Part shown: one piece after another, positions 14,201-26,873 of the stretch | How the letters are laid out: every line of letters begins with the position of its first letter | Position numbering within the stretch: the first letter of the stretch is position 1 | Notes under the pieces: model-generated | The model's input: only the letters and a program-made list of their open reading frames with translations | The model's database searches: none | What the model was told of the DNA's origin: nothing | Program-made: the position numbers and the translations under genes | From: Owenia fusiformis | Lineage: Eukaryota; Annelida; Polychaeta; Sabellida; Oweniidae | Assembly: GCA_903813345.2 (NCBI GenBank) | Contig: CAIIXF020000007.1 | Coordinates: 12,209,031 to 12,273,030 of the forward strand | Direction: 5' to 3' | DNA length: 64,000 bases

Positions 14201-17200
14201 TTACCAGAAGTTGGTATGGCTCAGCGGGACATTGCTCTCCTGCTGCGCGGTCAACTGTGGTTTGAATTCCTCGTCATACTTTTTATTTTTTAACTGAAAA
14301 AACGTTATAAGTACGCCAAATATATAACAAAGCACAAATGAAGCATGAATAATCTTCTCAGTTGTTTGAAATGTAAAAATGATTTATGTCCAAATATTGC
14401 GTTTCATGAAGAGGTCAACCTTTAACCAATGCTGACCGAGTTGCCACCTTTATACATTTTTTGCTATAGCGAGATAAAGTTCAACAACAACAACAGATGT
14501 TTCTAAAATTGGCAGAACTGCTGATTTTAAATTTAGACAAAATCATGCGATATCTCACAAAGGACTCAGTTTGTTTCAATTTCAATTAGTGGAATATTCA
14601 AACAACGATTTTTAAAATTAAATAGGAAACCTTTTCTTAAAGTACACATGCCATGATGTTTATTAAAGTAATTTGGCTAGAAACTCAAATAAGTTTTTAG
14701 AAAAGGGGCCACCAAAATACATGTAGGACTATGATGAAAAAATATCTAAGTCAATAGAAGTATTAAAAAGTATGGTGGAGGAAGTAGCATAATGAATAGC
14801 CATATAAGCTTACTAAATGATGCCATTTTTCATTAATTTGTAAATATTTTACTTCTACTTCCAGAGAGCGCTGACCCAGAATAATAATGAAGATATCTGT
14901 TGTCTCACACACTTTGCTCACTTGGTTGGAGGCATGGATGCTTTACGCATGCAGGGTGAACTATGTGATGTCATACTTCTTGCCGGCAATGAAGAAATAT
15001 CTGCCCATAGGATTGTTCTAGCGTCATTCTCACCATATTTTAGTGCAATGTTTACCAGTGAGTTATCTGAAACCACTCAAAGTGTGATCAACATAAAAGA
15101 AATGGATCCTGAATCTCTGGCTACTGTAGTTGATTTTGCGTATACAGGCCAGTTAGAAATAACTGAGTCAACTGTACAACATCTGATGACTACAGCTGCA
15201 ATGTTACAGCTGTCTCAGGTTCTCGAAATGGGATGTACATTTTTGAAATCTCAGTTGGATCCAAGCAACTGTCTAGGGATCCGCAAGTTTGCTGAAATGC
15301 TTGGCTGCTCTGGACTTCAAACAATCGCTGATTGCTTTGCACAGGAACATTTTAAATCAGTGTCCCGTAGTGATGAATTCATGAAGCTGGATGTTGATGA
15401 TGTCATAGATCTGATATCGCGTGATTCGCTAAATGTGTCTAAAGAAGAAGAGGTATTTAATGCAGTAATGGATTGGGTTGAGTATGATTCACAGGAAAGA
15501 CTTGACTGCTTAGGAAATATATTGGAACATGTTAGACTACCTCTTGTTTCCTGGGAGTTTTTAAAGAACACTGTAGGGAGAGATAAGCTCTTCACCTCCA
15601 GAGAGGACTGTTCTCGATACTTTCAGGTAACAGTTCTATGGAACCCCAAGCAATTGCTTAAGAAATTATTAATTATTTAATTAAATGAGTAATTTTTTTG
15701 TGTTGGCTATGTTTTCATGAGCTTGTATACAATATAAAAGTCATGGAAATATGAAAGGCTGAAAATAAAGTGTCCAAAAATATACTTTTAGTGCAATTCC
15801 TATTGATTGGACCTTTCCTGTCAAGTTAATAGTACAATAACGTCATTTCAAAGGGCAATATAGTAAAATATTGGACCAAGGGCTGCAGAAATGACGTTAT
15901 TACTATTATTACCACCGTTAATGACCAGGGCTGAAATAGCAAATTTGAAATAGAAAATCTTACGCACTGAACGATATCACTTTTCCCGGGAAACATAGCC
16001 GGGCGGATAATGTCATTATTGCCCGACTAAAGTCATTAACGCCCGACACAATATTGCTCACATCAATATAGCAATTTAAATGCCTTCTCAACTAGTACTA
16101 AAACTCCTAGAACAGGCCCTGCAAGGTGGTAATAATATGAATTGTAAATTCTATGAAAACTGTTATTGCTAATACATACAATAATAATACATACCTTGAC
16201 TTTGTACATGTACAGGGTGTCCGGAAAGTAAAGATACAAATGCTCTCATTTCAAGAGATTTACCTGTTATGAGATGAAATTGCTACAGATTGTAGAATGA
16301 CATTATAAGAATATATCCTACAACTGTCATGACTTTCAGTTTCATAATGAAAAGGATCTTTTTTTTTTGCATCTTTTTTTTTTCTTGTATATTAAAAATG
16401 ATGTGATAAACTTATTTCACACATGTGTGATATTTTCATATTGAAAGGTTTTAACTACTGAATTTTCATATTGAAAGGTCAAGTACATGTACCTTGCAAT
16501 CTCAACCAAATATGATTTTAATTCTGTATTAATTTTATTTTATAATTGTTGTGTTCTAGGAGGCTCGACAGTTCCATGCCAGGCTGTATCATCCTGATCT
16601 TGTAAACTTCCAGTTTAACCCATCAACTCTTCGTTCTCAACCAAGGGCCTCATTTGGACAATCTCAGTACATTTATATTGTAGGTGAGAGTTACTCTATT
16701 ATCATTTGATCTGTAAAATGAAGCCCTCTGGTTGGCCAGTTCTTGTGCTGTACCAATCTGGATTTTTACAGGATTGATCATCTCCATAGCAATACATTAA
16801 TAATATTAAATGTTAATAAAAGTGGAAGTAATGGTTTTAGAGCAAGTCAGAATTTCTAGGGATTATCTCCTATGTAAAATGTATTGGCCTAAGATCACAC
16901 CATGAAAACATTATAGAATGATTTGAAATGGTATACAGGATATATTGTGCTCACAATATTCTGTATTGGCACTACTTCGTCTTGTCACAGAATTTCAATT
17001 CAGAATATCTTGAGCACAATATATTGAAGTGTATTGCACTTCAGATCATTCAATAACTTATAACTTATTTCAATAACTAGTGGTATTGCCAAATTATATT
17101 TGTCTGCCTTATACATGTACAGTGTACATGTAGTTAATTAAGCTTATGCACTGTTGCTTATGCATTGAGCGAGAAAGATTACAAACGTCAGAATGATGTC

Positions 17201-20200
17201 CAATTATCTATGGATAAATTAAGTTAACTTCATCATGGTTTGACCCCCTCCTCCCCTCATTAAACAAAATTTTTAAATGTTGCTTTGTCTTTCACTTTAA
17301 TTTTAAAAAGAATCAACACTATTCGCTAATGAAACATAAACAGTCTATTGTTACATATATTTCTATAGATGTCTGAATTAAATTTATTATTGAATAAATC
17401 TTGTTACAATCTTGTGTATAGACATGGTATTTTTTCATGGTATTCATTTCATTCATTTTATCTATAATGTGTGTAATGATTAATTTAGGTGGAGAAACAA
17501 GCCCTGGGCGGGTGACAACGAATGATGTAGAATGCTTCCACCCTCAATCAAACCAACTCACCTCCTTACCCAGCATGCCTTTCCCCTCCCGAGGAATAGG
17601 TCTAATCCACCTGGAGAACAAATTATTTTGTATAGGTGGAGCTGATGGTTATTCAGCCTTGAACTCTACAACATTGTTTGATATAGAGAGAAATGAATGG
17701 CGACAGGGCCCCTCATTGATAGAGAAGCGGAGTAGTGTTGCTTGCGCTTTGGTCATGGGGTGTATCTACGCATGTGGAGGATATGATGGAAACTCGTCTA
17801 TGACTTCTGTCGAAAAGTTTGATTCATCCAATAACAGCTGGGTCAAGGTTGCAGGTAAATAATAATATGTGTGGGATATAAGTGTGTGACAAAAAGGAAA
17901 TGTCCATATTTTATTTTTGCATGGGGAGAGCAAATAAGTGATCTGGCATACAATGTACATTACAAAAGATTGAATCTGAGACATACAGTGTTGGCGAAGT
18001 GACAAACGTAACTGTTCCATTCCAAGCATACAGTAATATATCAAAACATACAAGTACTTTATGTAAAATAAATGCAATTCTAAAAGCTATGTTTTTTTTG
18101 GAAAAGGTATGAGTACATTATACTCTTACAAGAAAGGTTCCATGGTTACAGAAACAGATTTTGGAATTTTTGTATTATGAATGTCTCCCTGATAGACTGA
18201 CTTGAAGAGTTTTCATGTAGACTTACACACAGAGGCCAAGTATTTTACTAAGAATATTCCAAAGTTAGACATTTCATCCACCCAATACATATTGCAAGTT
18301 AATATGGTTTCCTTTAGGTTTTAGGCAGATATAAAGATGGCAGCAGTGGCAGAATGTAACCTTATTGATTTCACTCCCACCCTTATCACGGTGTATAACC
18401 CAAACGCTCCTACATGCACGACAGAGCGTTTCATTACTGAAATTAAACAAAGAAACGCTCCGGAGTAGGAAAACTGTCTGGCGGGAATGATGAGCCGTCT
18501 GACAATTTCCCCAATAATGGGAATAAGAGGTATGAGTTACATATTTCGAGTATACCATTCGATGGGTGTGATATTTATGTTGTACGTGGCTGGCTGTTGA
18601 CGTTTGAAGCAATTAGGAAGAGCTGTACGAAGCAGTAAAGTTATCAAAATTCAAAAACGTATTTGTCATTCTACCGGTCAAAACCCCTTTTGTCGATACA
18701 TGTGATTAGTTGAGCCAAGATTAGAGCACCAACGTATATTTTAGTCAAATTCCAATGCTTCAACGCACCAAACATTATCGTAATAGTGATTTGATGACCG
18801 AAAATCCAGTCTTAAAAATGATGACATTCTCATATTCAAGAAACGCTCCGATCTGGTTAACACAGTGAATTGGAAACGCTCCGGTAGTCTAGATCAGTTA
18901 AGGAAATATATAGCTTGCTTTTCCTTTTCAGGAAGAGAAAGAAAAGATCTATTATACGCCTTGGCATCAATAGAAGAAAGATTAATTCACATATAACTTT
19001 TCGTTTTTTTCTATAGTTTTATGATTTAGCACATATGTAGGCATGACATCATCTAATGTATAGGCTTTAATCAGCTAGTTGCACGTTTAGCACCACCAGG
19101 TTCAGATGTTTCAATTTGCCTAACAAGTACAACACGTTTTTGAGAGATAGATTCGATTCGGAATTCTCTCTAATAATCTGAAAATGATATCAAAACAAAA
19201 TGGTAAGAGCGTTTCTAAAATTGTGGTCTAAATCGACGGAGCGTTTCGAGGAAAACAAGCGATTTCTCGAGAACAAGTAATGGATTTGGACTGGGATTTT
19301 AGGAAATGAGAATATACGAGTTTGTGATCTACTACTTAAACAGAAAGATTAACGTTTTTAAGAAATACTAGATTAATTCGTAATTTGTGGTCAAATCGTC
19401 ATCTTCAGATTCGTTCGATCTACACTACGGAGCTTTGATCAAGCAAATAACAGTTTACCACCAGAAGTTGAATAAATAAGATCTTTGCTCATGGTATTGT
19501 TCATCGAATGGTACATAATATTTCACCATGACATATGATATGTAAGAGAAACGAGAGAAACAATACTTACGGTCATAGTAGAATCTTCATTAGCCGCCAT
19601 TTTATTTCGCTCCGGAGCGTTTCCGCGTAAATGTAACGCTCCGTCGTGCATGTAGGAGCGTTTGGGTTATACACCGTGCTTATTGAAAATTATTTCAATC
19701 AACCTTAAGCTCATGATGAGAGTCTCAATGTATACTTTCAAAATCGAGCATCCCTGTCCCAGCTGGAATGAATTGAAATACTCTTGGATCATGGATGGTA
19801 TATATACAGAGTGTTTACATTTGTAATGTTCATTTCAGCTATGCCATCAAAACGCAGTATGGCTGCTGCGGTAGCAGTGAACAAGGATCTCTATGTTATA
19901 GGTGGATATGATGGCGGATCAGATCTGAAAACAGTTGTCAAATACATGGTCAAGGTGAGATATTTTTATTGCAATATGTGAAATGACTGAAGTCATACTC
20001 TTTAGCCTCTTGACTACCTGGAGTGACGAAATTTCTCAGAAAATCAGTCGCAAAATTTTTCATTAAAGTTGCTCTTATTTGAACAATTTCCATTCAATTT
20101 ACACAAAAATTGCTTTGGAATGTGTAAAAATGATCTTTGCCGTCTAATTTACTAATTTGAGCATTTAGAGTTATATATAGGTATGTAGTTAAGTGTCAAA

Positions 20201-22867
20201 AGGTGGCAAAAAAATGAAAAATTCTCTGGTTTCAACTGATTTTAGAGCCTGGGATTCAAGATGTAAATTACTGTTAATAATATTATAAGCATTAGGTTGG
20301 CAGAGAAGAATAAACATCTGGCTTATAAAGTTTGAGAATTTATGCTCACACTTAGGTGAAATATTGTTTCATTTATCCCACCTTAATAGCATCGTGAGAT
20401 ATCACAGCCTTCTCCCAGTTTCCTTCTAGAACATTCCTGTGCATAGCAGAGATGGTCTGAGTATCAGAATGCCTTAATAGTGGTTCTGCCTTGTATAAAG
20501 GAACAAACAAATCAGATAATTCATGTTCTTCCACATGCATTATTAACACATACATCTTCACATTGCATTAAAGTTAATCTTCTGACTTTCATTAATGTAT
20601 AGATTGACACATGGAGTGAGGTTGCTGAGATGTCAACTTGCAGATCAATGCTAGCAGCATGTGTGCTCAGTAGTGACATCTATGCTGTAGGGGGATGCAA
20701 CCACAGTCTCAGGTAAATGCTCAGTAGTGACATCTATGGTGTAGGGGGATGCAACCACAGTCTCAGGTAAATGCTCAGTAGTGACATCTATGCTGTAGGG
20801 GGATGCAACCACAGTCTCAGGTAAATGCTCAGTAGTGACATCTATGCTGTAGGCGGATGCAACCACAGTCTCAGGTAAATGCTCAGTAGTGACATCTATG
20901 CTGTAGGGGGATGCAACCACAGTCTCAGGTAAATGCTCAGTAGTGACATCTATGCTGTAGGGGGATGCAACCACAGTCTCAGGTAAATGCTAAAGTAACG
21001 ACATCTATGCTGTAGGGGGATGCAACCACAGTCTCAGGTAAGTGCTCAGTAGTGACATCTATGCTGTAGGGGGATGCAACCACAGTCTCAGGTAAATGCT
21101 CAGTAGTGACATCTATGCTGTAGGGGATGCAACCACAGTCTCAGGTAAATGCTCAGTAGTGACATCTATGCTGTAGGGGGATGCAACCACAGTCTCAGGT
21201 AAATGCTCAGTAGTGACATCTATGCTGTAGGGGGATGCAACCAAAGTCTCTGGTAAATGCTCAATAGTGACATCTATGCTGTAGGTTGATGCAACCACAG
21301 TCTTAGGTAAATGCTCAGTAGTGACATCTATGCTGTAGGGGGATGCAACCACAGTCTCAGGTAAATGCTCAGTAGTGACATCTATGCTGTAGGTTGATGC
21401 AACCACAGTATCAGGTAAATGCTCAGTAGTAACATCTATGCTGTAGGGGGATGCAACCACAGTCTCAGGTAAATGCTCGTGATAATTTTTGGTTTGCAAA
21501 CATTTTGCAATGCAAAATTCAATTTGCAGGCCCGTAAGACACTTTTCTCCAAGGGGGGTGCGGTTTTTACTAAAGAGAATATAAAATTGTCAATTTTTTT
21601 GCCGCGTAAACCAAATCACGTAAGTCAGAGGGGGGGGGGGTTCGGTCACTCCCCTAGAAGATTTTACAGTTTTGAGATGGGGGGGTGTCAAGGGGGATGC
21701 CAGATTTTAAGACACTATTTGGTGCTTCCTGGGCACTTTCAAAGTGTATGAGTCAATTAAAAAAATTGAGAAAATCACAACTTTTATCCAATTTTTTTTT
21801 GGGGGGGGGGTCAATGGGGGGGGGGCGCCAGAGGGGGAGGTGGTGTGGGGATGCAAGTGCAAGATGCAAGAGGCGAGCAAGTGTTAGTCCCCCAGAAACA
21901 CTAACTGTATCAAGGAGCTATTTGATGATGTCTGTGCACTTTAAAAGTGTCTGGGACAAAACACTAAAATAAATTTAGAACTTTTCCATTGTTTTGTGGG
22001 GGGTGTGAAGGGTGGCCAATACCCCTAGAAAATTTTACAATTTTAAGATGCTATTTGGTGCTTTCTGGGTACTTTCAAAGTGTATGAGTCAATGAAAAAA
22101 AATTACAAAAAATATTAAAAAAAAAAAATTTCAAAAATATATTTTTTTTGGGGGGGGGGGGGGGTGACAAAGGGGGGGGGGGGGGTGCGGTCGCACCCAT
22201 CGCACCCCCCCCCCCCCCCCATCTGACGGCCCTGATTTGTGATTCAAATATGAGATAAAGGGGAAATGATACTAATTTACCACAAGACATTATTGTCAGT
22301 TTCTTTTGAATAAATGTCTGTATTGATATGTATTTCTGTTAAATCATGGTGAGGCAGTTGCCTAGCCTGCTTTATGATTGGCTAAGAATGCATCCTGGAC
22401 ATTTTGATTCATTGTAAAAGTAGGCAACCTTTTTTAATAAACAAGGCACTTTGCAGGTCTTTGAAAAGTTGTACAATATTTTAAAATGCATATTTTCCGA
22501 AAATTTACAGTGCATGAACTTGTATAGACTTTTCTAATAAACATATAACCACATATAGACTAGTGTCAGAAATTAGAACTGACTGAAAAGTAGGAATTAG
22601 CTGTTTAGTGTTTTATATTCCTGTTCCAGTTTATCATGTGTAGAGACATACAGCATCATAACAAAACTATGGACTAAAATCTCAAATATGATTCAGCCTC
22701 GGAGTGGTGTAGGTTGTGCTGTGATTGGTGAAACAGTATATGCTGTAGGCGGACATGATGGAACAAAGTATCTCAAGTGCATTGAGAAATACGACAAGAA
22801 AAGTAATTGTTGGATTGAAGTGACACATTTAGATACTGCAAGGAGACGATTTGGATGTTGTTCTTGA
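11225..22867 (+). CDS. BTB-BACK-Kelch protein (KLHL family)
   Basis: Substrate adaptor of a CUL3 ubiquitin ligase, by family. Exons: 11225-11254 (tentative start), 14865-15626, 16560-16683, 17489-17854, 19839-19954, 20603-20712 and 22630-22867. From 14865 onward all are joined by GT-AG with consistent phases, giving 572 codons including the stop, or about 581 aa with the first exon. BTB: GELCDVILLAG ... AHRIVLASFSPYF. BACK: LDPSNCLGIRKFAEMLGC ... EEEVFNAVMDWVEYD ... VRLPLVSWEFL. Six kelch blades follow, with GG turns in IVGGETS, CIGGADGY, CGGYDGNSS, VIGGYDGGS, AVGGCNHS and AVGGHDGTK. The stop is in exon 7. It looks closest to KLHL20/KLHL28-type proteins from memory, but orthology is not settled. 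The first exon (MAEHIKTNSE) has a weak donor GTACTT; translation could instead start at the ATG in GGMDALRMQ (14934). Confidence 0.9.
11590..11870. repeat. Minisatellite, about 48-60-bp unit, about 6 copies
   Basis: Tandem units with core GCCTGGCATGACCGTGACAA followed by TGT(A/T)ATATAG and TACTGCAAG. Units diverge toward the left end (GCCTGCCGTAACCGTCACC). It lies in the first KLHL intron. An antisense open frame across it (11656-11847) only reflects the repeat. Confidence 0.85.
12055..13321. mobile_element. TIR element with CACGGTG-type ends, 5-bp TSD
   Basis: A 1267-bp element in KLHL intron 1. The right end read inward is CACGGTGTTATAGCATGACA; the left end is CAAGGTGTTATAGCATGACG, followed by GTTACG in both. 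It is flanked by AAATT at 12050-12054 and 13322-13326. Inside is a candidate coding exon (12653-12865). CAC ends and a 5-bp duplication are features of Transib/RAG-like transposition. No transposase is visible in the element. Confidence 0.8.
12653..12865 (+). CDS. Candidate coding fragment inside TIR element
   Basis: An open stretch after a good acceptor (TTTGTTTTCAG ending 12652), reading DSQEPLLFEPLYGKEKFVSC, then an acidic segment (QKDTDEEAKEELASSTDEYD) to a stop at 12863-12865. It is phase-0 compatible with the tentative KLHL first exon (11225-11254) and possible donors CAT|GTACAT or CAT|GTATTT lie near 12830. Because it lies within the transposon at 12055-13321, it is more likely element-derived than KLHL sequence. 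The LFEPLY block with an acidic tail recalls transposon-linked proteins of invertebrates, but only weakly. Confidence 0.3.
   Translation, partial: DSQEPLLFEPLYGKEKFVSCFIYETNLSQKDTDEEAKEELASSTDEYDKINNNESAYIHVHVFKRASRNL
13326..13460. repeat. Near-perfect 135-bp palindrome
   Basis: Arms of about 58-60 bp (left starts TACCCCCATAAATGTGAGG, right ends CCTCACATTTATGGGGGTA) differ mainly in one T-run length. The loop is about 16 bp of A-rich sequence. It directly abuts the right flanking duplication of the element at 12055-13321. Confidence 0.9.
13504..13853. mobile_element. 350-bp MITE, GGGTTTGTGTAAAAAACCGG ends, 9-bp TSD
   Basis: Inverted ends of about 65 bp starting GGGTTTGTGTAAAAAACCGG, with internal degenerate (ACC)CGGTT(A/C)CC steps and CCTAGCAGGG. 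The flanks TCATAAGTC (13495-13503) and TCACAAGTC (13854-13862) match at 8 of 9 positions, consistent with a Mutator-like 9-bp duplication. A right end of the same family is at about 47870-47935. Confidence 0.75.
13863..14864 (+). other. KLHL intron 1, distal part
   Basis: Apart from the tRNA-like sequence at 14209-14280 no structured feature was seen. The stretch ends with the polypyrimidine tract and acceptor of the BTB exon. Confidence 0.4.
14209..14280 (+). repeat. tRNA-derived sequence (SINE head or pseudo-tRNA)
   Basis: Contains an A-box TGGCTCAGCGGG (14217-14228) and a B-box-like GGTTTGAATTCC (14259-14270), about 30 nt apart as in tRNA internal promoters. The acceptor stem pairs poorly and the B-box lacks the canonical GGTTCGA, so it is not an intact tRNA gene. 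Confidence 0.4.
14865..15626 (+). CDS. KLHL exon: BTB and BACK domains
   Basis: A single 254-codon exon, phase 0 at both ends, with acceptor TTCCAG at 14859-14864 and donor GTAACA at 15627. It encodes the CUL3-binding BTB fold (about the first 120 codons) and most of BACK. The donor is followed by an in-frame extension that stops at 15678, so failure to splice gives a BTB-BACK-only protein. The long antisense open frame at 15317-15595 is a shadow of this exon. Confidence 0.95.
15627..16559 (+). other. KLHL intron: hairpin and mariner-like end
   Basis: Holds a short hairpin at 15828-15908 (arms AATAACGTCATTTC / GAAATGACGTTATT) and, from 16212, a single TACAGGGTGTCCGGAAAG end like those of the TA-flanked elements at 46332 and 55427. 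The opposite end was not found. Otherwise nothing was recognised. Confidence 0.45.
16560..17854 (+). CDS. KLHL exons: end of BACK and kelch blades 1-3
   Basis: Two exons, 16560-16683 and 17489-17854. The first (EARQFHARLYHPDLV...) ends BACK and opens blade 1 (YIYIVG|GETS, the split glycine codon confirming the junction). The second carries CIGGADGYSALNS and CGGYDGNSSMTS, each followed by a Tyr/Phe-x...W pattern typical of kelch. It ends phase 1 at GTTGCAG|GTAAAT. The intron between them (16684-17488) contains nothing recognised. Confidence 0.93.
18387..19678. mobile_element. CACGGTG-ended element, copy 1, 5-bp TSD
   Basis: A 1292-bp element in a KLHL intron. Both ends read CACGGTGTATAACCCAAACG inward and continue CTCCTACATGCACGAC, for inverted repeats of about 48 bp with few differences. 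It is flanked by CTTAT at 18382-18386 and 19679-19683, an exact 5-bp duplication. The interior repeats the motif AAACGCTCC many times in both orientations and has no convincing coding sequence. A second copy lies inverted at 53616-54794. CACGGTG plus a 5-bp duplication matches Transib/RAG-type ends (heptamer consensus CACNRTG). Confidence 0.9.
19839..20712 (+). CDS. KLHL exons: kelch blades 4-5, end at amplified donor
   Basis: Exons 19839-19954 (AMPSKRSMAAAVAVNKDLY, then VIGGYDGGSD) and 20603-20712 (IDTWSEVAEMSTCRSMLAAC, then AVGGCNHSL). The second ends CTCAG|GTAAAT in phase 2 and joins 22630 to complete a serine codon. The last 49 bases of this exon plus the donor are the first copy of the 54-bp tandem array that follows. 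Confidence 0.92.
19955..20602 (+). other. KLHL intron, no clear element
   Basis: No repeat was recognised. A minus-strand open frame at 20373-20561 (including SDLFVPLYKAEPLLRHSDTQ) has a protein-like composition and could be an eroded transposon or retrogene exon, but has no family I recognise. Confidence 0.3.
20664..21478 (+). repeat. 54-bp tandem array of KLHL exon end plus splice donor, 15 copies
   Basis: Fifteen direct copies. Copy 1 is the real end of the kelch exon (to 20712) plus its donor; copies 2-15 follow without spacers. Each unit ends CACAGTCTCAG|GTAAA, so every copy carries a potential 5' splice site (copy 7 has GTAAG; copy 11 CTCTG|GT; copy 12 CTTAG|GT). Copy 9 lacks one G. 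The units are otherwise 95-100% alike, implying recent expansion. Reading past the true donor gives AGG TAA, an immediate stop. The antisense strand is open across copies as an 18-residue repeat, which is incidental. Confidence 0.95.
21520..22240. repeat. G-run repeat block
   Basis: About three diverged units with 'AAGA(C/T)(A/G)CTATTTGGTGCTT', 'GGGCACTTTCAAAGTGTATG' and 'AGTCAAT.AAAAAAATT', separated by runs of 8-14 G (21630, 21795, 21815, 22150, 22180) and one C-run (about 22206). It ends TCTGACGGCCCTGA. It has strong G-quadruplex potential on the plus strand within the same KLHL intron as the donor array. Confidence 0.8.
22630..22867 (+). CDS. KLHL last coding exon: kelch blade 6 and stop
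   Basis: Acceptor CTGTTCCAG at 22621-22629. It encodes LSCVETYSIITKLW, then GCAVIGETVYAVGGHDGTK and a C-terminal RRRFGCCS, with TGA at 22865-22867. The frame and the split serine codon match the donor at 20712/20713. Confidence 0.93.
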
Positions 22868-26011: not shown

Positions 26012-26873
26012 CACACCGGAAAAGCCTGACAACTGTAAAGTCAGATACCGTTGTCACAAATGGCGGACATAACCGTCGCTTTAACTCTTTAAATCACATA
26101 GTGGCTGGTAGTGTATTTGAAAGGTATTTTTGAACTTACTTCAAATTGACCAGTTACTCTTTTAAAAATCATCTACAAGTTATCAGAAGTTCAAATTTGA
26201 CTTTAGATATGAACTTTGACCTTCAATGACCTTCTCAAGGTAAAAAAGGTCTTTTTTCAACTTGCTTCAAGTTGACCAATCTTTTTTTCAAAATCGTTTA
26301 CAAATTCTCAACAGTTCAAATCTGACTATAGATTTGACCTTCAACGACATTCTCAAGGTCAAAGAGGTCTTTTTTTCATCTTGCTTCAAGTTGACCAATT
26401 TTTTTCAAAATCATCTACAAGTTCTCAGAAGTTCAAATCTGACTTTAGATTTGAGATTCTACCTTCAATGACCTTCTCAGGGTCAAAAATGGTATTTTCA
26501 CAACTTGTTGAAGCAACTTATTGACCAATTTATTTTTTCAAAATCATCTACAAGTTCTACGAAATTCAAATCTGACCAAGATTGAACTCATAATATTGTG
26601 AGCAACAAGGTGGTGACATTTTGTCATGTTAATGCCTTGTCAAATATTATCGTTGTCATCTCGATTTTACATTAAAGCCTTTATTTCGATGGTAGAACAT
26701 ATTTAACTATATGATGAATAGAAAAATACTTTGAGTGATTGTAGTACCAAAGGAATTTAATCTAGTCGCTCTATTAAATATACAGTTCATGAAAATCTAA
26801 TTGAAGCGACGGTGATGTCCGCCATTTGTGACAACTGTATCTGACTTTACCGTTGTCAGGCTATTCCGCTGTG
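26012..26873. mobile_element. CACACCGG/CACAGCGG-ended element, 5-bp TSD
   Basis: An 862-bp element with inverted repeats of about 73 bp (CACACCGGAAAAGCCTGACA left, CACAGCGGAATAGCCTGACA right; then AAGTCAGATAC and AAATGGCGGACAT). It is flanked by AACAT at 26007-26011 and 26874-26878. The centre (26100-26570) is four diverged units of about 120-130 bp that also occur inverted at 4970-5870. Related copies: 33028-33187 (short) and a left end at 50797-50880. Confidence 0.88.

What the first reader, a model, noticed from the sequence alone, without database searches (positions are those of the whole stretch)
20664..21478. Fifteen tandem copies of a real splice donor and exon end in a KLHL gene
The unit is not random: it is the last 49 bp of the kelch-blade exon plus the first bases of the intron, so each 54-bp copy carries its own CTCAG|GTAAA donor. 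The unit length is a multiple of three, but reading past the first donor gives an immediate TAA. Use of any downstream donor would therefore truncate the protein, while use of the first gives the normal product. The array could titrate U1 snRNP, slow splicing, create a length-variable allele affecting KLHL output, or be neutral. The near-identity of copies points to recent expansion. It could also be an assembly artefact.
Basis: partly seen in the sequence, partly recalled or inferred. Interest (0 to 1): 0.75.

Follow-up and report, generated by a model that had tools for sequence, protein, structure and literature searches.

The report
Repeated exon ends in worm gene
The end of one coding block of a KLHL-type gene, with its splice signal, is repeated 15 times in a row in what looks like an annelid worm genome; the arrangement is of a known kind and probably harmless, because the first copy can be spliced and the rest discarded, but other genes of the same genome show it too, which makes it a natural test of how cells choose between identical splice sites.

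Summary
Fifteen units (13 of 54 bp, one of 55, one of 53) run from 20664 to 21473; each holds the last 49 nt of a kelch exon and the first 5 nt of its intron. Joining donor 1 to the exon at 22630 keeps one open kelch frame through four exons; any later donor reads an immediate TAA. Donor positions in copies 2-15 vary as much as the rest of the unit. This is a minisatellite over an exon-intron boundary, like amphioxus 'mirages' and the human CBS 31-bp VNTR (passages read). New here: it is not alone. Of 24 other donor-word arrays examined, 11 end a Pfam-supported exon, against 5 of 40 isolated copies of such a word. For UGDH and CTDNEP1, joining donor 1 to the next exon gives a gapless match to the solved protein. 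The genome carries an annelid-type marker. Most likely mechanism: microhomology-mediated tandem duplication, then expansion; splicing uses the exon-proximal copy and removes the rest. No RNA or population data were available, so copy-number variation and leaky splicing stay untested.

The parts
20603..20712 (+). Exon 4 of the KLHL gene (110 nt, part of a kelch repeat); its last 49 nt are the exonic part of repeat unit 1
   Evidence: open frame between AG at 20601-20602 and GT at 20713; Kelch_1 E 6.9e-7
20664..21473 (+). Tandem array of 15 units (13 x 54 bp, copy 7 = 55, copy 9 = 53), each exon end plus donor; a partial TGCTC follows to 21478
20713..20718 (+). Donor 1 (GTAAAT), the only donor that leaves the kelch frame open
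21038..21043 (+). Donor of copy 7, the only one with GTAAGT after CAG
20713..22629 (+). Intron if donor 1 is used (1,917 nt), holding copies 2-15
   Evidence: frame-preserving GT to AG join
22630..22867 (+). Exon 5 (kelch repeats, ends in TGA)
   Evidence: Kelch_1 E 8.4e-17
19839..19954 (+). Kelch exon 3
17489..17854 (+). Kelch exon 2
14865..15626 (+). BTB and BACK exon; its end phase (762 nt, 0) does not fit the start of the exon at 17489, so at least one exon or border between them is not identified
   Evidence: BACK E 1.2e-33, BTB E 2e-29

Best explanation
A minisatellite laid over an exon-intron boundary. A 54-bp segment holding the last 49 nt of the kelch exon and the first 5 nt of the intron was duplicated in tandem, probably through the short match TGCTC, which occurs in the exon (20664) and again right after the last unit in the intron (21474), and then expanded to 15 copies by unequal exchange or slippage (inferred). 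The gene stays usable because splicing joins the exon-proximal copy (donor 1) to the exon at 22630 and discards copies 2-15 with the intron; this is inferred from the reading frame and from homologues, not from RNA. Any use of donors 2-15 gives one and the same truncated protein, with the stop 50 nt (donor 2) or more upstream of the new junction. The array is one of a recurrent class in this genome, and on present evidence its extra copies are close to neutral.
For: Units and variants. TGCTC at both edges. Joining at donor 1 leaves one open frame of 275 residues over four kelch exons and joined exons 4-5 align to kelch proteins across the junction. Donor positions not more conserved than the rest. 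Same build at other genes: 11 of 24 donor-word arrays end a Pfam-supported exon. In UGDH and CTDNEP1 donor 1 joined to the next exon matches the solved proteins without a gap. Published mirages have regular mRNAs (passages).
Against: No RNA evidence for donor 1 in this animal. Copy 7 has the better consensus donor CAG|GTAAGT. From memory, built pre-mRNAs with duplicated identical 5' splice sites often use the intron-proximal one, which here would truncate the protein. The exon-end share of arrays exceeds that of isolated words, which pure chance placement of arrays would not predict, although the rate of arrays per word does not differ from a control word. No copy-number data.
Confidence: 0.72

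Rival explanations
1. A length-variable dose control: the extra donors bind U1 and compete with donor 1, so that a share of transcripts set by copy number is truncated and lost, tuning KLHL output.
For: All 15 units keep GT and 12 of 15 the full 9-mer; copies repeat the upstream exon context too, so the sites are near equal; every later donor meets a stop. From the name and title of a paper seen only in a reference list, the CBS VNTR is associated with reduced activity (Lievers 2001).
Against: No excess conservation of donor positions. At other genes the same build occurs with units not divisible by three and with stops yet the genes' joined exons read normally.
Confidence: 0.13
2. The extra donors are kept by selection as U1 sites that protect the nascent transcript or hold the exon end safe against loss of donor 1 (reserve donors).
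For: Exon-end arrays are more frequent among donor-word arrays than isolated words would suggest: 5 of 8 against 5 of 40, p 0.006.
Against: Donor positions are not conserved beyond the rest of the unit. Acceptor-side arrays without need of donors also occur (UGDH). A reserve donor would give a truncated KLHL protein.
Confidence: 0.07
3. A stage of intron birth: boundary repeats supply new splice signals and the intron itself is young.
For: The six best non-self kelch matches in the genome span the junction residue in one open frame, so they lack this intron. The globin paper proposes intron creation from mirages.
Against: The unit carries an in-frame stop after the donor, so the duplicated stretch already held a junction. 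Absence in paralogues does not date the intron.
Confidence: 0.05
4. An assembly artefact that repeats one exon end.
For: Near-identical copies; the globin paper notes a mirage that looked aberrantly assembled in a draft.
Against: Eight of 15 copies differ from the consensus; copies 12 and 14 share a two-base change; arrays with other units occur at unrelated genes.
Confidence: 0.03

Closest known systems
Amphioxus 'mirages' (Adh3, globin, troponin C, PGBD5 genes; PMC3087553 and PMC3902484, passages read; the original Adh paper not seen)
   Different: Reported in cephalochordates; here the genome carries an annelid-type marker. Length variation and mRNA were shown there and not here.
Human CBS 31-bp VNTR, c.1444_1467+7(16_21) (PMC2630376, passages)
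   Same: Unit is the end of an exon (24 nt) plus the start of the intron (7 nt), with 16-21 copies; here 49 + 5 nt and 15 copies.
   Different: One locus with known alleles and (title in its reference list) reduced activity; here no allele data.
Human CBS 844ins68 (PMC2630376, passages)
   Same: A duplicated intron-exon junction from which splicing strongly favours one copy and makes normal mRNA; like the acceptor-side arrays of UGDH and CTDNEP1 here.
   Different: A single duplication, at an exon start, not an array at an exon end.
Intron gain by tandem duplication of AGGT (PMC4974935, listing and start of abstract only)
   Same: Tandem duplication of a stretch with AG/GT.
   Different: Here the duplicated stretch already straddles a junction and carries an in-frame stop, so the copies lengthen an intron and do not make one.

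Membership tests
Mirage-type exon-intron boundary minisatellite | Tandem units that span an exon-intron boundary | tested here: met
   49 nt of exon 4 plus 5 nt of intron per unit
Mirage-type exon-intron boundary minisatellite | Many units carry AG/GT splice signals | tested here: met
   GT in 15 of 15, AG|GT in 14 of 15 (copy 11 has TG|GT)
Mirage-type exon-intron boundary minisatellite | Length differs between haplotypes or cells | not testable with these tools
   one assembly; the array is matched at one place among the scored matches
Mirage-type exon-intron boundary minisatellite | Repeats do not disturb the regular mRNA | not testable with these tools
   no RNA; only the frame-preserving join at donor 1
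Intron gain by tandem genomic duplication | Duplicated stretch was exonic, and a new intron lies between copies without loss of coding sequence | tested here: not met
   unit holds an in-frame stop right after the donor
KLHL family | BTB, BACK and several kelch motifs | tested here: met
   Pfam matches on five exons; that all five are one transcript is inferred, and the phase between 15626 and 17489 does not fit

The most novel reading that the evidence does not exclude
Arrays over exon boundaries are a pervasive and non-random feature of this annelid-type genome: a mutational process that prefers transcribed exon-intron junctions, or weak selection, has built many of them on both sides of exons, several in one gene, and the spliceosome of this animal reliably takes the exon-proximal one of many near-identical sites. 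The genome would then be a natural library of splice-site competition experiments.
Probability: 0.2. Interest if true: 0.8.

Novelty: new member of a known kind. Interest (0 to 1): 0.5.

Why it matters
Which of several identical 5' splice sites is used is a basic question of splicing, usually studied with built minigenes. Here the same exon end and donor stand in a row many times in conserved genes, so RNA-seq of this species could show directly whether nearness to the exon, nearness to the acceptor, or order of synthesis decides. It also matters for annotation, since repeat masking and gene callers can misplace exon ends in such genes. The KLHL array alone is an ordinary member of a known kind; the recurrence at other genes is the part worth following.

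Tried and rejected
Intron gain inside an exon: rejected, because the unit contains an in-frame stop. The six best non-self kelch matches span the junction residue in one open frame, so those relatives lack this intron, but that does not show a recent gain.

Recursive splicing or 54-nt nested introns (donor k to the AG before a later donor would restore the normal product): considered and thought unlikely, because no pyrimidine tract precedes CTCAG and other AGs lie close upstream (read); not tested.

Antisense open frames of 18-aa repeats (112 aa at 20651-20989 and 158 aa at 21113-21589, minus strand): not taken as a gene, because one open 54-bp unit simply repeats itself.

Excess of donor-word arrays by raw match counts (634 + 206 against 271 + 192): dropped as evidence, since long arrays count many times.

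Control-word arrays (reversed word TGAATGGA): 12 loci fetched; TRF finds no array at L030, so 11 arrays. Fifteen ORFs lay over an array edge by my rule; 10 of them, from 8 loci, were scanned, with Pfam matches at two loci: a symporter exon that ends about 25 nt before a wholly intronic array (L033) and a serpin ORF that an array runs into (L035). So arrays near or over exons are not confined to donor words.

Twenty isolated AGGTAAGT sites from the start of C1 (L038-L057) were read by eye only and not used in the count, because all lie in the first 1.15 Mb of one chromosome; 40 sites spread over C1-C4 replaced them. COX1 was not found in the assembly, so the mitochondrial genome could not name the species. 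I had also thought the KLHL end unusually short; the PDB matches run nearly to the end of KLHL12 chains, so I dropped this.
Full report
Observation. TRF finds 20664-21478, period 54, 15.1 copies, 95% matches. Split into units there are 15 from 20664 to 21473, followed by the partial TGCTC. Units 7 and 9 are 55 and 53 bp. Seven of 15 equal the consensus exactly; eight carry changes. GT is intact in 15 of 15, the 9-mer CAG|GTAAAT in 12 of 15. Mean pairwise identity is 95.8%. Copies 12 and 14 share a two-base change that copy 13 lacks, which fits a two-unit duplication or conversion (inference).

Gene. Exons on the plus strand match BTB and BACK (14865-15626) and Kelch (17489-17854, 19839-19954, 20603-20712, 22630-22867) (Pfam on slightly different borders; borders). 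The four kelch exons, joined with donor 1, give one open frame of 275 residues to a stop. The BTB/BACK exon ends in phase 0 and does not fit the start of the exon at 17489, so something between them is not identified; that all five belong to one transcript is inferred. After designed kelch proteins, the best PDB matches of the joined kelch part are KLHL12, IVNS1ABP and KLHL20; this does not settle which KLHL it is. Reading past donor 1 gives CTC AGG TAA, stop at 20714-20716, 50 nt before the exon end that donor 2 would make. All later donors would give the same truncated protein.

Origin. TGCTC starts unit 1 in the exon and recurs right after the last unit in the intron (20664 and 21474), as expected if the first duplication used this short match (inference).

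Selection on the extra donors. Copies 2-15 have 3 changes in the last 8 unit positions (112 cells) and 15 in the other 46 (644 cells), Fisher p 0.74. There is no sign that donors are kept, but 18 changes give little power.

Other arrays. I searched the assembly for three donor words in a row: CAGGTAAR at spacing 30-60, AGGTAAGT at 38-68 and CAGGTAAGT at 38-68. Each listing stops at about 100 places, so these are the first arrays in contig order and not all. Every distinct array listed was taken: 7, then 7 more, then 10 more, 24 in all (two stretches on C1 about 2 kb apart, 59186297 and 59188356, were taken as one and only the second was fetched). For each I translated the frames that end at the first donor word and scanned those of at least 25 (first 14 arrays) or 22 residues (last 10) with Pfam; L011 and L064 had no such frame. 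At E up to 0.001, 11 of 24 have a domain match that ends within 7 residues of the first donor: NIF phosphatase (L012), M24 peptidase (L017), Muted (L020), Cys-loop receptor (L023), UDP-glucose dehydrogenase (L024), MRPL52 (L025), Caprin (L059), Kringle (L060), Il2rg-like (L062), protein kinase (L065), PP2A B56 (L066). Kringle and kinase are below Pfam's own cut-off. Seven more look like exon ends by eye only (L014, L016, L019 with tetraspanin at E 0.016, L021, L058, L061, L067). L011 looks like an exon start on the other strand (by eye). L013 and L064 lie in introns shortly after what looks like an exon end; L013 has a weak synthetase match (E 3.2e-4) that ends well before the array and is not counted. 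L015, L022 and L063 show no exon.

Base rate. Of 40 single AGGTAAGTCATT sites on C1-C4 (the first 40 of 100 listed of 146, fetched), 5 reach the same Pfam threshold (L085, L090, L095, L100, L107; in L100 the best stretch lies far from the donor but is counted). Fisher tests: 5 of 8 arrays (L012, L019-L025) against 5 of 40, p 0.006; 10 of 18 with the arrays, p 0.001; 11 of 24, two-sided p 0.006; with L013 counted, 12 of 24, p 0.003. The arrays have C before AG|GT, which is more typical of real donors, so the first comparison is the fairest. Seven of the 40 sites seem, by their translations, to be copies of dispersed repeats; without them the p values are 0.013, 0.004 and 0.017. These are small numbers and the sites were not matched for gene density. 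Against special targeting stands the rate per word: on C1 and C2 (19.7% of the assembly) there are 7 donor-word arrays for about 3,757 sites and 10 arrays of the reversed control word for about 6,665, 0.19% and 0.15%. So arrays in this genome often cover true junctions; that junctions attract arrays is not shown.

What splicing must do. For 19 exon-end arrays including the KLHL one (7 of the frames chosen by eye), an in-frame stop lies before donor 2 in 11; in two more (L016, L059) donor 2 shifts the frame; in six the unit is a multiple of three and some extra copies could be read through. For UGDH, donor 1 joined to the last of the 91-bp repeats of the next exon start (4.4 copies) gives a 101-residue protein that matches solved UDP-glucose 6-dehydrogenase over 100 residues without a gap. 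For CTDNEP1 the joined exons match the solved protein over 82 residues without a gap. For the Muted-like gene a frame reading EKRQDREVERL lies downstream; that it continues the known protein is recalled. UGDH also has a 130-bp array before the donor-side exon (5.2 copies), and CTDNEP1 a 26-bp array of 2.8 copies at the next exon start. The simplest rule is that the copy nearest the body of the exon is used on either side (inference; no RNA).

Organism. G000 has 498,259,871 bases and three matches over cut-off to the annelid erythrocruorin linker family (the 14 control genomes, none matched, are as far as named prokaryotes and tell nothing about animals). The Owenia fusiformis paper gives 505.8 Mb and 12 chromosome-scale scaffolds (PMC9977687, passages), and the genomic places listed in my searches lie on C1-C12. 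This fits Owenia but does not prove it.

Literature. Amphioxus mirages are tandem duplications of exon-intron boundaries with length variation and regular mRNA (PMC3087553, passages; PMC3902484, passage). The CBS VNTR c.1444_1467+7(16_21) has the same build (PMC2630376, passages). A human survey notes that repeats at exon-intron boundaries may form new introns (PMC2812944, passages). The DOK7 paper shows that duplicated 5' splice sites compete under SRSF1 control (PMC5585400, passages). I saw no report of such arrays in annelids in the listings; an earthworm metallothionein paper reports intronic minisatellites and exon 4 duplications absent from the transcript (PMC12783039, passages). The library lacks most subscription papers, so this is weak evidence of novelty.

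Verdict. A real exon-boundary minisatellite of a known kind, most likely spliced at its first donor and near neutral; of wider interest because the same genome shows others at conserved genes.

Noticed in passing
L024 and L108 (G000 C2:33703200-33708900): The UDP-glucose dehydrogenase gene has three arrays around two exons: 130 bp x 5.2 at one exon start, 45 bp x 12.7 at its end, 91 bp x 4.4 at the start of the next exon.
   Followed up: partly
window 21516-21600: Right after the array a stretch with at least 39 close matches elsewhere in the genome, followed by G-rich low-complexity DNA; looks like a dispersed repeat inside the intron.
   Followed up: no
L014 (G000 C1:53780640-53784944): A 48-bp donor-word array of over 4 kb that begins at what looks like an exon end.
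   Followed up: partly
L022 (G000 C1:51116462-51116989, minus strand): A 58-bp array whose units hold a pyrimidine-rich stretch, TAG and AG|GTAAGT, acceptor-like and donor-like signals side by side; no exon seen.
   Followed up: no
L111 3423-3611 (G000 C1:2580022-2580210): A second array (46 bp x 4.1) at the end of an open frame downstream of the Muted-like exon, so this gene too may hold several boundary arrays.
   Followed up: no
L035 (G000 C2:29632300-29633030): A 24-bp array in one open frame (repeat PEWLNPFN) that runs into a serpin-like stretch; coding repeat or exon-start array.
   Followed up: no
window 26120-26583; L111 676-1106 and 2180-2474: Imperfect tandem repeats of about 103-125 bp rich in TGACCT-like words in both places, perhaps one family (by eye).
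   Followed up: no
window 20651-20989 and 21113-21589, minus strand: Open antisense frames of 18-aa repeats over the array; judged mechanical.
   Followed up: partly
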